DNA of 44,703 bases from a virus: positions 1 to 44,703 of IMG/VR virus record IMGVR_UViG_3300015189_000007. One strand, written 5' to 3'. The position numbers were made by a program, and so were the translations under genes. Below, piece by piece: positions 31,652-36,320 of the stretch. Numbering within the stretch: position 1 is the stretch's first letter; the number at the start of each line of letters is the position of its first letter. The notes beneath the pieces are model-generated. The model did no database searches, was not told the DNA's origin, and worked only from the letters and a program-made list of their open reading frames with translations.

Positions 31652-31978
31652 TCAGCTGAGGCCGAGCAGGCGGTTGATCCGCTCGGCGCCGCGCTCCTCG
31701 GCGATGATGTCGAGCTCGCGCCGGACGGCCCGCAGGCGCTGGCGGATGCCCTCGGCCCGGACGACGAGGTCAGCCTGCTCGGCGACCAGCGTCAGCTCCC
31801 GCTCGAGGAGGGCCAGCTGGGGATCCTTGGTCGCGAGGATCTGGCGGATCCGCTCGTCGCTGAGGCCGACCGCCTCGCCGATCGCCGCCAGGCTCCAGCC
31901 TTCGCGGTCGAGCTCGCGGATCCGCGCGTCTCGTTCACGGCGGTCCATCGCCTGGGGCACGGAGCGGGAGGCGGTCAT
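31652..31978 (-). CDS. Small HTH protein beside the recombinase (possible directionality factor)
   Basis: 108 residues. RERDARIRELDREGWSLAAIGEAVGLSDERIRQIL (about 14-48) is a helix-turn-helix like sigma region 4 or resolvase tails. A coiled-coil-like helix follows (LALLERELTLVAEQADLVVRAEGIRQRLRAVRREL). It overlaps the recombinase gene (ATG within the stop). Recombination directionality factors of serine integrases are diverse in sequence and often adjacent, so this is a candidate, without motif proof. Confidence 0.55.
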   Translation of the reverse strand: MTASRSVPQAMDRRERDARIRELDREGWSLAAIGEAVGLSDERIRQILATKDPQLALLERELTLVAEQADLVVRAEGIRQRLRAVRRELDIIAEERGAERINRLLGLS

Positions 31979-33513
31979 GCCGTCCTCGAGGCGCGCAGCC
32001 GCTCACGACGGCCGACGATGGGGATGCGGGCTGGCAGCGCGGTCCCAGCACCTGCCGGGGACGCCATAGCAGCTTGGATACCCTCCGGCAGCGCGACATC
32101 GAGCCCGTTGGCGTAGGCCGCGGCGGTGAGGGTGACGCCGACGAAGGTCGGACCTGCCACCTCGACCCGGGCGTAGATCCCGCGGATGAGCTCGGCCTGC
32201 TCGCCGGGCGTGGCTTTGGCCCACAGGACGGCCAGGTCCTCGAGGTAGCCGAGCGCCTGGTCGACGTCGACCGCGGGGGTCGGTGCCGTGCGTGCCTCGG
32301 TCTCCTGACGGCGGAGCTCGGCGAGCTGCTCGAGGTAGGCCGTGTCGTCGATCGATCCCGCGACGTGGCGCTCGGCAAGGGCGAGCTTCATGCGCCGGAA
32401 GCGGGCGGCCGACGCGCCGATCGGGACGGGCTGGGGTGCGGTGACGACGCGCCGGACCGCGGCGATGGTGCGACGGTCGAGCCGCAGGCCGGCGACCTGG
32501 CGGGCGATCGGCTCCTCCCACGTCTCGGCGGCGTAGCGCGCCTGGCGACCCCAGGCCGAGCAGGGCTGCGGGTGCAGGCGGGCGCGCCGCTGCGATCGCC
32601 CCGAGCCCGTCATCCCGTCCGCCCGGATCCGGCGACCACAGACGCACCAGAGCAGGCCGAGGAGCGGATCCGTCTGGCCGACGTGGCGCGGCCCACCGCC
32701 GCGGGTCTTCGCCAGGCGGATGTCCTGGACCTGGGCCCATAGCTCGTCGTCGACGGGCGGGTCGTGACGCCATGGGGCGGCCCGTCGCTCGCCGCCGCGG
32801 TGGCGGGTGGCCCAGCCGTTGTAGAGCGGGTTGCGCAGCATCTTGCGGACCTGCTCGGAGCCGAGGTCGAGCTGCTGGGCGACGTCGTCGATCGACACGT
32901 TGCCGAGGGCGTACCGGCGGAAGGCCTCGACGGCGCGATCGATGGTGACCGGGTCCAGCTGCAGCAGGTGCGGCGGCTCGCTCGAGCGCCGGAAGCCGAG
33001 GGTCGGGTTGCCCGCCTGGTCGCCGTGGCGGGTGAACTTCGCGGCGTAGCCGTCGGTGATGCGCCCGGCCAGGCGGCGGATGTAGCGCTCGGCCGACGTC
33101 GCCTCGGCCACGAGCTCGTCCCAGTCGTCGGGGTCGCTCGAGAGGATGCGCCGGTCGGCCATGAGGACCGCCACGCCGGCCGGGTGGAGTTCGTCCTCGA
33201 GGACCTCGAGGGTGCGCCGCAGGTTGCGCTGCCAGCGGTCGCTGTAGCCGACGACGAGGACCTCGAAGCGCCCGGCCTGCGCGTCCGCGACCATGCGCCG
33301 CATCGCCGGCGAGCGCCAGGCGATCTTGCCCGACACGGCGACCTCGTAGGCGATGCCCGAGTCGACGAGGCCCCAGCGCTCGGCCGCGCTGTCCTGCCGC
33401 TCGCGCTGGCTGTCGGGCCCGAAGTTGTCGAACTGGCCCGTCGTCGATTCGCGGATCCAGCGCGCGAACGTGCGGCCGCGGAGGTCGTCGAGGGAGCGGG
33501 GCAGGCGGGTCAT
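31975..33513 (-). CDS. Large serine recombinase (phage integrase)
   Basis: 512 residues. The catalytic domain has ARWIRESTTGQFDNFGPDSQRERQ, with S23 as likely nucleophile and R21 next to it, and VVGYSDRWQRNLRRTLEVLE with the second Arg group. A recombinase domain (NPTLGFRRSS, IDDVAQQLDLGSEQVRKMLRNPLYNGWA), a zinc-ribbon part (LLWCVCGRRI...PQPCSAW) and a coiled-coil region (AELRRQETEARTAP) follow. Such enzymes cut with a Ser-DNA bond and use short attP/attB sites. The start MTRLPRSLDD at 33513 is coupled to the preceding tiny ORF. Confidence 0.95.
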   Translation of the reverse strand: MTRLPRSLDDLRGRTFARWIRESTTGQFDNFGPDSQRERQDSAAERWGLVDSGIAYEVAVSGKIAWRSPAMRRMVADAQAGRFEVLVVGYSDRWQRNLRRTLEVLEDELHPAGVAVLMADRRILSSDPDDWDELVAEATSAERYIRRLAGRITDGYAAKFTRHGDQAGNPTLGFRRSSEPPHLLQLDPVTIDRAVEAFRRYALGNVSIDDVAQQLDLGSEQVRKMLRNPLYNGWATRHRGGERRAAPWRHDPPVDDELWAQVQDIRLAKTRGGGPRHVGQTDPLLGLLWCVCGRRIRADGMTGSGRSQRRARLHPQPCSAWGRQARYAAETWEEPIARQVAGLRLDRRTIAAVRRVVTAPQPVPIGASAARFRRMKLALAERHVAGSIDDTAYLEQLAELRRQETEARTAPTPAVDVDQALGYLEDLAVLWAKATPGEQAELIRGIYARVEVAGPTFVGVTLTAAAYANGLDVALPEGIQAAMASPAGAGTALPARIPIVGRRERLRASRTA

Positions 33514-33587
33514 CGGATGGCGTTTGCCAGCCGGCGCAGAGCGGCGTTGAGGGCCTTGACCAGGAGGGCCACGACGCGATCGCTCAT
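33510..33587 (-). CDS. 25-residue coupled peptide ahead of the recombinase
   Basis: MSDRVVALLVKALNAALRRL forms one amphipathic helix. Its ATG overlaps the upstream stop and its TGA overlaps the recombinase ATG. It may simply carry ribosomes into the recombinase gene. Confidence 0.4.
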   Translation of the reverse strand: MSDRVVALLVKALNAALRRLANAIR

Positions 33588-33844
33588 GCGGCGTTGCAGA
33601 GGATACAGGCGGGCTGACCGCCGGGTGGTCGTTCGTCATGAGCGCCCTCGAGGTCCGCCTGACGCGACCAGGTCGTGCCGCAGCGGGCGGCGATGAGACC
33701 GCGCGACGTGACGGTGCGTTGCGGGTCAGCGAGGCGGTGCCACGGCATCGTCATGCGGCCGAGCTCCGTCGCTGGGCGCGGGCGAACCCAGGGCGACAGG
33801 GTCGGGAAGTCGTCGACGCTCATCGCCCGGCTCGGCTCGCTCAT
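33584..33844 (-). CDS. Hypothetical protein, 86 residues
   Basis: MSEPSRAMSVDDFPTLSPWVRPRPATELGRMTMPWHRLADPQRT; the C-terminal part has RCGTTWSRQ and CILC that could bind zinc. Coupled on both sides by ATGA overlaps. No family recognised. Confidence 0.55.
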   Translation of the reverse strand: MSEPSRAMSVDDFPTLSPWVRPRPATELGRMTMPWHRLADPQRTVTSRGLIAARCGTTWSRQADLEGAHDERPPGGQPACILCNAA

Positions 33845-34275: not shown

Positions 34276-34477
34276 GACGCGACCTGGCCCGGGCCTTCGC
34301 CTTCCGGACGTACACCACGGCGAGGCCGCAGGTCGGGTGGATCGTGGCCTCGTAGCGCCGCTTGTCGCCGGGCGCGGTGTGCTCCTGGCGACGCGGACAA
34401 AAGTCGGCGAGGGTCGTGCCGGCCGCCTCCGACGCGCGGACCCGGACGACGAGGCCCGACGGCAGGTGGACCCTCAC
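34268..34477 (-). CDS. Hypothetical protein, 69 residues
   Basis: VRVHLPSGLVVRVRASEAAGTTLADFCPRRQEHTAPGDKRRYEATIHPTCGLAVVYVRKAKARA: beta-rich start, one CPRR and one PTCG cysteine, basic end. GTG start coupled by GTGA to the preceding gene. No family recognised. Confidence 0.55.
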   Translation of the reverse strand: MRVHLPSGLVVRVRASEAAGTTLADFCPRRQEHTAPGDKRRYEATIHPTCGLAVVYVRKAKARARSRHG

Positions 34478-34712
34478 GGCGCCACGTCCGTCGGCGGCAG
34501 CGTCACCCGCGGCCCGGTCACGACGACCCACGACCCCGGGCACAGGCCGAAGCGCAGCTCAGCGCCGCAGATGCGCTCCCAGCGGTTGAGGTCGAGGTCC
34601 ATGATCCGGCCCAAGACGAGCATCTCGTGGTTCGGCCCGGCGTCGGTCGAGACCATCTCCTCGCACGAGGCGGGTCCGCAGACGCGGATCCGGCTGTCCG
34701 GGCCTCAGGCAT
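34474..34712 (-). pseudogene. Truncated or frameshifted paralogue of the 34894 C-terminal domain
   Basis: The frame MVSTDAGPNHEMLVLGRIMD to VVVTGPRVTLPPTDVAP (60 residues from ATG 34656) is clearly related to the last 70 residues of the gene ending at 34894 (MVSTDAGPNRERL, CPGSWTV, LPPTDVAP). The similarity continues upstream of 34656 (GPDSRIRVCGPASCEE) to near 34709, but no start codon lies in that frame. The coupled ATG at 34712 opens a frame one base off. A single-base indel would restore a full gene, so this is a broken copy or a sequence error. Confidence 0.6.
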
Positions 34713-34897
34713 CACTCGCCTCCCGTCGACGTCGGCGGCGGCAGGTGAATCGGGTCAGCCTTGGCCAACCAGCAATCCGCGCAGACACAGCTGTCGGTGC
34801 ATCGCTCGTGATGACCGCCAGGTCCACCGATCGGTCGGTACGGGTGCGGCTCCTCCGCCAGTCGGTCCATGCGCTCGCTGATCGTCTCGGTCGTCAT
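34712..34897 (-). CDS. Small zinc-ribbon-like protein, 61 residues
   Basis: MTTETISERMDRLAEEPHPYRPIGG, then HHERCTDSCVCADCW, a dense cysteine/histidine cluster for one zinc. The ATG overlaps the stop of the upstream gene (ATGA). It lies between the two paralogous domains. Confidence 0.6.
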   Translation of the reverse strand: MTTETISERMDRLAEEPHPYRPIGGPGGHHERCTDSCVCADCWLAKADPIHLPPPTSTGGE

Positions 34898-35853
34898 GGC
34901 GCCACGTCCGTCGGCGGCAGGGTCATCCGCGCCCCGGTGGTGACCGTCCATGACCCCGGGCAGCGGCCCATCCGCGCCGGCACCCCGCAGAGCGTCTCGA
35001 AGCGCTGCCAGCTGACGTCGGCGATGATCCCGGCCTGCAGGCGCTCCCGGTTCGGCCCCGCATCCGTCGAGACCATGTCGCGGCAGGCCGCGGGCCCGCA
35101 GATCCGGACGTGGACGCGCGGGCCCAGCGGGATGGCCAGGTAGTCCACCGGCCAGCCGCCGCGGCCCATGTGGGTGATGACGCCCTCGCGGCCGACGCGC
35201 GGGTCGAGGGTCGATGGGGCGCCGCTTAGGCCCGGGGCGGGATTCGAACCCGCGACCTCCGACGACGCATACACGTCCAATCGGTGCTCTGCCGACTGAG
35301 CTACCCGGGAATGCGGCGCCCCGCTCGTCGTTCGATCGGACGCACTGCCCTGGACCTGGGCCGACGTGCCGCGCACAGCGGTCACCCCGGAGACACCAGG
35401 TTGGGAAGCCGTGGGGTCGAGCGACGAGCGCGGAGCCGCGACGCGGGCGATGTGGGCGACGAGCAGGGCAGCGAGGACGAAGCCGACGATCCAGGCGAGC
35501 CCGAGGGCCGCCCACATGATCCAGTGGTGGCAGCTGCCGTCGTGGATGTGGCCATCGACCTGCAGCCGTCGGGTGGTGATGACGGGCTCGGGGCCCGCGA
35601 CGTAGCGCTCCAGGCGGGCGCGGTCGACGGGCTCGGGGCCGCCGTGGCAGAGGTAGTCGTGGATGGCCCGGTCGTGGTACGGACGCCCCATGCAGGGCGA
35701 CACGCGGCAGATCAGCATCGGCCCCGGGTCCTCCTCGTCGGCCCACGCCTGGTACGCCGCGTTGCGGCGGGGGTGGAGATCGCGACGCCATGGGTCGCCC
35801 GCGGCGCCACGACGCTGCGAGGTGCCGCGGGTGTCGCGGTTCAGGTCGGTCAT
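34894..35853 (-). CDS. Open frame spanning a membrane protein, a tRNA-like gene and a conserved C-terminal domain
   Basis: A single frame of 319 codons. The first part (from MTDLNRDTRGTSQRR, ATG 35853 coupled to the RusA stop) has CRVSPCMGRPYH and one membrane span (HWIMWAALGLAWIVGFVLAALLVAHIA). The middle translates the tRNA-like gene (RVAQSAEHRLDVYASSEVAGSNPAPG), which is what a tRNA sense strand yields. The last 91 codons from ATG 35169 (MGRGGWPVDYLAIPL) form the domain duplicated at 34474. I think two separate genes flank the tRNA and the continuous frame is partly accidental, but no stop separates them. Confidence 0.5.
   Translation of the reverse strand: MTDLNRDTRGTSQRRGAAGDPWRRDLHPRRNAAYQAWADEEDPGPMLICRVSPCMGRPYHDRAIHDYLCHGGPEPVDRARLERYVAGPEPVITTRRLQVDGHIHDGSCHHWIMWAALGLAWIVGFVLAALLVAHIARVAAPRSSLDPTASQPGVSGVTAVRGTSAQVQGSASDRTTSGAPHSRVAQSAEHRLDVYASSEVAGSNPAPGLSGAPSTLDPRVGREGVITHMGRGGWPVDYLAIPLGPRVHVRICGPAACRDMVSTDAGPNRERLQAGIIADVSWQRFETLCGVPARMGRCPGSWTVTTGARMTLPPTDVAP
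35229..35310 (-). tRNA. tRNA-like gene with a 9-nt over-long anticodon arm
   Basis: From 35310 down: acceptor TCCCGGG, TA, D arm GCTC-AGTCGGCA-GAGC, A, then 26 nt in place of the usual 17, then AGGTC, T arm GCGGG-TTCGAAT-CCCGC, acceptor CCCGGGC and discriminator C. No CCA is encoded and the first acceptor pair (T-C) is mismatched. The anticodon arm would be CCGAT...GTCGG, with a further inner stem GACG...CGTC and loop TGTATG. No normal 7-nt anticodon loop is possible, so no amino acid can be assigned. Confidence 0.6.
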
Positions 35854-36320
35854 CGGGTCTCCTTGAGCGTCGAGATCTGGACCTGGCAGCCCGGGCGTCG
35901 CTGGTGGTCCTCGAAGACCTTCCACGTCCGGATCCCGGCGACCTGGCTGTCGTCGCGGACGACGACGTTGGTGATCCCGTCGAGCAGCGCCCGGACGAGC
36001 TTGTCGAGGTCGGGCTTCTTGGCCACGAACTGCGGGGCGCCCACCCGGAGGACGGGCTCCGGACGGCGCGCGTTGGCCGGGAGGTAGTGGCTGGCGGGGC
36101 GCGGGAAGACGAACCAGGCGGTGACCGACACGGGGTGGGTCGTCGCCTCGAGCTCGCCCATCGCCCGGCTGGCCGCGCTCGCGATCGCCCCGCGCCAGGC
36201 GCCGATCGGCGAGTTCGAGCGGTTCGCATCGGTCGCGATGCGGGCCTTGCCGCCGGCGACGAAGGCGCGGGCCGTGCCCTGGGCGATGGGCAGGCCGCGG
36301 ACGGCGAAGGTCAGGTCCAT
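35850..36320 (-). CDS. rusA: RusA-like Holliday junction resolvase
   Basis: 156 residues. The RusA signature is present: KKPDLDKLVRALLDGIT (102-117) with D104 and D106, then VVVRDDSQVAGI (119-130) with D123/D124, the acidic residues that bind metal. The N-terminal FAVRGLPIAQGTARAFVAGG is also typical (RGxPxxQGR). It resolves four-way junctions during phage recombination and before packaging. It lies in the early operon after the replication-initiator-like gene. Its ATG lies within the end of the preceding gene (10-nt overlap). Confidence 0.9.
   Translation of the reverse strand: MDLTFAVRGLPIAQGTARAFVAGGKARIATDANRSNSPIGAWRGAIASAASRAMGELEATTHPVSVTAWFVFPRPASHYLPANARRPEPVLRVGAPQFVAKKPDLDKLVRALLDGITNVVVRDDSQVAGIRTWKVFEDHQRRPGCQVQISTLKETR

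What the first reader, a model, noticed from the sequence alone, without database searches (positions are those of the whole stretch)
35229..35310. tRNA-like gene with normal D, T and acceptor arms but an anticodon arm 9 nt too long
D arm, T arm, positions 8-9 and most of the acceptor stem read as a good tRNA, but the anticodon arm spans 26 nt, not 17. The extra bases can form an inner stem GACG/CGTC below CCGAT/GTCGG with loop TGTATG. No 7-nt anticodon loop results. It lies inside an open frame and lacks CCA and one acceptor pair. It could be a decayed tRNA, a tRNA mimic that acts on host tRNA enzymes, an intron-like insertion, or a past attachment site. Standard tRNA finders may miss or mislabel it.
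Basis: seen in the sequence. Interest (0 to 1): 0.65.

Follow-up and report, generated by a model that had tools for sequence, protein, structure and literature searches.

The report
Phage tRNA-like RNA without an anticodon
A phage that probably infects a Chloroflexota bacterium carries a sequence that folds like the body of a transfer RNA but has a hairpin where the codon-reading loop should be, so it cannot take part in normal translation; many other phage contigs carry similar anticodon-less tRNA-like genes, and what they do is not known.

Summary
On the minus strand, 35310-35229 matches the tRNA model (47.7 bits, cut-off 29) with D arm, T arm, elbow bases and 6 of 7 acceptor pairs intact. 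Its anticodon arm is 26 nt: CCGAU/GUCGG, a 2-nt bulge, then a 5-bp hairpin. ARAGORN mislabels it tRNA-Val(GAC). Two additions. A perfect 10-bp inverted repeat continues the acceptor stem (chance about 0.001-0.007). The element lies, same strand, in an open frame joining a membrane segment to a barrel-like domain; a relative has that protein uninterrupted, without the tRNA. Surveys of IMG/VR gave 161 distinct tRNA-like elements without a normal anticodon arm: acceptor 7/7 paired in 114 (random 1%), CCA encoded in 2.5% versus 47% of normal phage tRNAs, U33 at chance. The strict long-gap pattern gave 52 viral stretches but none in 798 bacterial genomes. One five-member family has a covarying basal stem. 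Best reading: a non-decoding tRNA mimic of a recurrent phage class. Its function is unproven; a decaying tRNA captured in a protein linker is the main rival. Y-RNA, intron and attachment-site readings are not supported.

The parts
35229..35310 (-). tRNA-like element, 82 nt
   Evidence: RF00005 47.7 bits, full model; ARAGORN
35259..35284 (-). 26-nt anticodon-arm position: CCGAU/GUCGG stem, UG bulge, GACGU-GUAU-GCGUC hairpin, no 7-nt loop
   Evidence: sequence; fold
35286..35301 (-). D arm GCUC-AGUCGGCA-GAGC with G18 G19
35237..35253 (-). T arm GCGGG-UUCGAAU-CCCGC
35304..35310 (-). acceptor 5' strand UCCCGGG; U1 faces C72
35230..35236 (-). acceptor 3' strand CCCGGGC, followed by C73 (35229), no CCA
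35313..35322 (-). 5' arm of the 10-bp basal stem, GGGGCGCCGC
   Evidence: chance 0.001-0.007
35216..35225 (-). 3' arm of the 10-bp basal stem, GCGGCGCCCC
34894..35853 (-). open frame that holds the element: transmembrane segment (about 35560-35440), linker with the element, double-psi-barrel-like domain (about 35180-34897)
   Evidence: continuous homologue without tRNA in L146/L058; the barrel name is my reading of the sequence, no Pfam match

Best explanation
It is a genuine tRNA-derived structure that can no longer decode: acceptor, D and T arms and the elbow are kept, the anticodon loop is replaced by a longer hairpin, and the acceptor stem probably continues into a basal stem. By architecture it belongs to a recurrent set of phage-borne, anticodon-less tRNA-like RNAs. 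Shown: the tRNA body, the absence of an anticodon loop, the recurrence in phages, the absence of the strict pattern from two bacterial phyla. Suggested: the basal stem. Inferred (about 0.3 on its own): it works as an RNA mimic recognised through elbow and acceptor by host tRNA-binding enzymes, most plausibly RNase P and RNase Z, as a processing or stability signal in the transcript of the gene it lies in, much as mascRNA does in the MALAT1 transcript.
For: tRNA model 47.7 bits with the elbow bases G18, G19, U54, U55, C56, A58 and G15-C48 present. 161 distinct phage elements share the plan; acceptor pairing, not used to select them, is 7/7 in 114 and 6/7 in 26 against 1% and 3% at random; CCA nearly absent, 2.5% against 47%; anticodon stem 5 bp in 27% against 1.4% of shuffles, U33 at chance. 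Strict pattern: 52 viral stretches, 0 of 400 Chloroflexota and 0 of 398 Pseudomonadota genomes. A five-member family with body, aberrant arm, open 1:72 and covarying basal stem shows this plan can be maintained. Region folds with z -3.2. mascRNA has a longer anticodon-equivalent stem with compact loop and an intact elbow and is cut by RNase P and Z (PMC11693755).
Against: No relative with this exact element, so no covariation for it. No promoter or terminator seen, though only sigma-70-type sites were scanned. The inner hairpin is not beyond chance. The basal stem, if formed, could hinder RNase P and RNase Z. It lies in an apparent coding frame, unlike most class members examined.
Confidence: 0.45

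Rival explanations
1. A decaying tRNA gene: a tRNA was captured by recombination into the linker-coding part of a membrane-anchored barrel-like protein gene and is now only coding sequence; the anticodon arm drifted and gained 9 nt because RNA function was lost.
For: Same strand and open frame from membrane segment to barrel domain; a relative has a continuous protein with a linker here and no tRNA; barrel domain partly duplicated 420 bp on, so the region recombines; U1:C72 mismatch.
Against: All other arms and tertiary-core bases are intact; codon-phase G+C signal is absent in the element and weak in the upstream linker; 82 nt is not a multiple of three, so an exact 82-nt insertion would have shifted the frame; the same plan recurs in many phages outside long frames.
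Confidence: 0.3
2. A decoy that absorbs host or defence nucleases or tRNA-modifying enzymes as a free RNA.
For: Phage tRNAs are known or proposed to evade tRNA-targeting defences (PMC10264068, found); an intact elbow with no codon reading fits a decoy.
Against: Known anticodon nucleases read the anticodon loop, which is missing; no own promoter or terminator was seen.
Confidence: 0.1
3. A Y RNA: tRNA-like module on a basal stem that binds a Ro60/TROVE protein and tethers a nuclease.
For: YrlA has a tRNA-like domain on a basal stem (PMC8394870); RHph_Y65 has tRNA-like elements with YrlA matches beside a TROVE gene; TROVE lies near the L012 element.
Against: No TROVE in the window; no YrlA match; YrlA has the T arm before the D arm (alignment); TROVE in 3 of 84 aberrant records but 8 of 50 normal-tRNA records.
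Confidence: 0.05
4. A working tRNA-Val(GAC) with a 9-nt insertion, removed like an intron or tolerated.
For: ARAGORN calls anticodon gac at position 34.
Against: Position 33 is G, not U; no 9-nt removal gives a canonical loop; U33 and R37 signature at chance in the class; U1:C72.
Confidence: 0.04
5. A remnant of a tRNA attachment site.
For: An integrase gene lies 1.6 kb away (31975-33639); integration into tRNA genes leaves tRNA fragments (PMC9897764).
Against: The integrase is a serine recombinase; the whole body is present, not a 3' half; best matches in 177 genomes of the presumed host class are 24-32 nt pieces at the T-arm end or about 75% over the body.
Confidence: 0.03

Closest known systems
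Canonical tRNA (Rfam RF00005)
   Same: Acceptor (6 of 7 pairs), D arm, T arm, variable loop and elbow bases
   Different: 26-nt anticodon arm with no 7-nt loop and no U33; 1:72 mismatch; likely basal stem
mascRNA / menRNA of MALAT1 and MEN-beta (PMC11693755)
   Same: tRNA-like body with elbow, longer anticodon-equivalent stem with compact loop, part of a longer transcript
   Different: Mammalian; D arm reduced there, complete here; RNase P and Z cleavage not tested here
Bacterial Y RNA YrlA (Rfam RF02553)
   Same: tRNA-like module on a basal stem
   Different: YrlA is permuted (T arm first, acceptor closed by a loop) and goes with TROVE; neither holds here
Phage tRNAs of tRNA-dependent lysogeny (PMC10865867)
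   Same: tRNA body carried by a phage with an integrase gene
   Different: Those are functional isotypes with tyrosine integrases; here no anticodon and a serine integrase
tRNA gene fragments left by integration (PMC9897764)
   Same: Non-canonical tRNA gene that annotation tools list as a tRNA
   Different: Those are partial copies; here the whole body is present

Membership tests
tRNA | Score above the Rfam RF00005 cut-off | tested here: met
   47.7 against 29 bits
tRNA | 7-nt anticodon loop with U33 on a 5-bp stem | tested here: not met
   26-nt arm, no 7-nt loop, no U33
tRNA | 7-bp acceptor stem | tested here: not met
   6 of 7, U1:C72
tRNA | Elbow and core bases (G18, G19, U54, U55, C56, A58, U8, A14, G15-C48) | tested here: met
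   all present in sequence and alignment
tRNA | Charging and decoding | not testable with these tools
   needs RNA from infected cells
YrlA Y RNA | Match to Rfam YrlA | tested here: not met
   no match at E up to 1
YrlA Y RNA | Permuted order, T arm before D arm | tested here: not met
   D arm first here; order in YrlA seen in the alignment
YrlA Y RNA | Linked TROVE/Ro60 gene | tested here: not met
   none in the window; host unknown
tRNA of tRNA-dependent lysogeny | Functional isotype replacing a disrupted host tRNA, with tyrosine integrase | tested here: not met
   no anticodon loop; Resolvase and Recombinase domains
Attachment-site tRNA fragment | Long identical stretch shared with the 3' half of a host tRNA | tested here: inconclusive
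   only short or body-level matches in 177 genomes, but the host is not known for certain
Recurrent anticodon-less phage tRNA-like elements (described here) | Normal D and T arms, paired acceptor, no normal 17-nt anticodon arm, no CCA | tested here: met
Recurrent anticodon-less phage tRNA-like elements (described here) | Basal stem beyond the acceptor (a subset only) | tested here: inconclusive
   10 bp, chance 0.001-0.007
mascRNA-like processing signal | tRNA elbow with a longer anticodon-equivalent stem and compact loop | tested here: met
   comparison from PMC11693755
mascRNA-like processing signal | Cleavage by RNase P and RNase Z | not testable with these tools
   needs in vitro cleavage or mapping of RNA ends

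The most novel reading that the evidence does not exclude
Phages of many lineages encode a so far undescribed class of anticodon-less tRNA-like RNAs, kept for the tRNA body and some mounted on a covarying basal stem; the window element is one of them and engages host tRNA-binding enzymes.
Probability: 0.35. Interest if true: 0.78.

Novelty: new variant of a known kind. Interest (0 to 1): 0.52.

Why it matters
Automatic annotation lists such genes as ordinary or undetermined tRNAs, so they inflate phage tRNA counts and hide a possible class of tRNA mimics. If the class is functional, phages use the tRNA body for something other than decoding (RNA processing, sequestration of host enzymes, defence evasion), which small-RNA sequencing of existing infection systems can test directly.

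Tried and rejected
Conventional refolding: covariance model and energy folding give the same long arm. Same element in relatives: ten contigs with 74-77% identical terminase were found, none with this element. Exact arm pattern in viral contigs: none. A donor tRNA in 177 genomes of the presumed host class: only T-arm or body-level matches to Met, His, Pro, Ala and Glu tRNAs, no clear donor. Y-RNA reading: raised by RHph_Y65 and the basal stem, rejected for the class because TROVE is commoner in normal-tRNA records. Intron reading: U33 and R37 signature at chance. Attachment-site reading: serine integrase, no shared 3' half. Phage hits H4 and H5 turned out to be ordinary tRNA-Met genes. Pattern and phage-collection searches with the barrel protein found nothing; relatives were found only by local tblastn. 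Literature searches for anticodon-less phage tRNA-like genes found no report in the held open-access library, which does not exclude one elsewhere.

Full report
What is there. On the minus strand, 35310-35229 is a complete tRNA body: acceptor UCCCGGG/CCCGGGC (6 of 7 pairs, U1:C72), U8 A9, D arm GCUC-AGUCGGCA-GAGC, A26, variable loop AGGUC, T arm GCGGG-UUCGAAU-CCCGC, C73, no CCA. RF00005 scores 47.7 bits against a cut-off of 29 and is the only Rfam match at E up to 1 in the 44.7-kb window. ARAGORN names it tRNA-Val(gac). The anticodon arm is 26 nt, CCGAU UG GACGU GUAU GCGUC GUCGG; energy folding finds this arm as the optimum. The inner hairpin on its own is what 22% of shuffled loops give, so the solid facts are the intact body and the missing anticodon loop. 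Taking out nine bases can restore a 17-nt arm (for instance CCGAU-UGGACGU-GUCGG), but not a canonical loop with U33 and a purine at 37.

The element is framed by a perfect 10-bp inverted repeat, GGGGCGCCGC (35322-35313) and GCGGCGCCCC (35225-35216), separated from the acceptor pairs by a small internal loop. The 127-nt region folds at -65.6 kcal/mol, z -3.2, none of 200 shuffles as stable. Helices this long occur in 0.085% of flank shuffles and 0.66% of equally spaced places in this GC-rich genome, so the basal stem is suggestive, not proven.

Surroundings. The window is an IMG/VR virus record with a RusA gene upstream (35850-36320) and a serine integrase 1.6 kb downstream (31975-33639). The closest terminase in a bacterial genome is on a Chloroflexota contig (52%), so that is the probable host phylum (inference). 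The element lies in a same-strand open frame, 35853-34894, that begins with a protein with a transmembrane segment and ends in a domain I read as a double-psi barrel from its sequence (no Pfam match). In the relative L146/L058 the same arrangement, membrane segment, Ser/Pro/Ala-rich linker, barrel, is one continuous protein with no tRNA. The barrel domain is repeated in part 420 bp further on. Codon-phase G+C is strong in the membrane and barrel parts, weak in the upstream linker and absent in the element. Whether ribosomes read through it cannot be told from sequence.

Relatives of the phage. Ten contigs with 74-77% identical terminase were found. Three of the 16 related records searched have other tRNAs; none has this element. 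The records that hold the barrel gene (G001, G005, G007) have no tRNA at that place. No exact copy of the arm exists in the viral collection, which may leave out records very near the window.

Is it a lone oddity? A pattern for a normal D arm and T arm with 28-45 nt between them (normal 22-27) matched 52 viral stretches, none in 400 Chloroflexota genomes and none in 398 Pseudomonadota genomes, although the normal-gap pattern matched 266 of the 400 Chloroflexota genomes. Wider patterns brought the set to 204 distinct matches, of which 161, the window element included, have no normal 17-nt anticodon arm. The acceptor stem was not part of the pattern, yet it is 7/7 paired in 114 and 6/7 in 26 of the 161, against 1% and 3% when strands are paired at random; normal phage tRNAs give 154 of 171. 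CCA is encoded in 2.5% against 47% (Fisher p 8e-24). In 139 elements with at least 6 acceptor pairs, a flush 5-bp anticodon stem is present in 27% against 1.4% of shuffles, while U33 (27%) and the YU-NNN-R signature (5%) are at chance. These look like tRNA bodies kept without an anticodon, not like tRNAs with introns. Of 26 loci examined for open frames, most lie outside long frames; the window element is unusual in lying within one.

A maintained family. L027, L035, L037, L298 and L512 share the body, an anticodon arm with a 19-22 nt loop that holds a GCAUUUGC-like motif, and a basal stem whose pairs change together at most positions; 1:72 is G:A in four of five. So at least one member type appears to be under selection as a structured RNA with the same plan as the window element: body, aberrant arm, open 1:72, basal stem. 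L042 and L008 also have basal stems of 9-10 bp. Over all aberrant elements the excess of basal stems is modest (11 of 142 versus 2 of 137, p 0.02).

Mechanism. It cannot decode in the ordinary way. The intact elbow and acceptor are what RNase P and RNase Z recognise (discussed for mascRNA in PMC11693755). The most likely mode is therefore an RNA mimic read by these enzymes, as a processing or stability signal in its own transcript or as a free RNA. I give this functional step about 0.3, because there are no expression data and the basal stem could hinder cleavage. The main rival, about 0.3, is a tRNA captured into a protein linker and now decaying.

Rejected readings. The Y-RNA idea was attractive because YrlA is a tRNA-like module on a basal stem (PMC8394870) and RHph_Y65 has such elements next to a TROVE gene. 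But the window has no TROVE gene, YrlA is permuted, and TROVE is found in 3 of 84 aberrant records against 8 of 50 normal-tRNA records. tRNA-dependent lysogeny needs a working tRNA and goes with tyrosine integrases (PMC10865867). Attachment-site remnants are partial tRNAs (PMC9897764).

Limits. The patterns only find elements with consensus D and T arms. The class may be mixed, and some members are near-duplicates. No relative of this exact element is available, so its own conservation is untested. Only an open-access library could be searched for earlier reports.

Noticed in passing
L035, L037, L027, L298, L512 (also L402, L505, L514, L530): Family of phage tRNA-like elements with a covarying basal stem, a 19-22 nt loop with a GCAUUUGC-like motif in place of the anticodon loop, and a 1:72 mismatch.
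   Followed up: partly
L387:333-447, 512-586, 780-880 (Rhizobium phage RHph_Y65, record 138390-139579): Unannotated 1.2-kb stretch before a TROVE gene holds two YrlA-like matches below the Rfam cut-off and one non-permuted tRNA-like element with a basal stem.
   Followed up: partly
L388:795-874 (Caudovirus D_HF5_2C): Unannotated tRNA-like element with a long anticodon-arm hairpin, followed at once by a run of T as in a terminator; it overlaps the start of an annotated hypothetical gene.
   Followed up: no
window 34474-34704 and 34894-35124: Partial tandem duplication of the barrel-like domain, 420 bp apart, 73-74% identical.
   Followed up: no
L004:3066-3141, L011:7770-7847, L021:1434-1511: Phage tRNAs that ARAGORN reads with four-base anticodons (gtaa, ttgg, tcga), that is 8-nt loops.
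   Followed up: no
records behind L267-L326: TROVE/Ro60 genes are found in 8 of 50 phage contigs that carry a normal tRNA.
   Followed up: no
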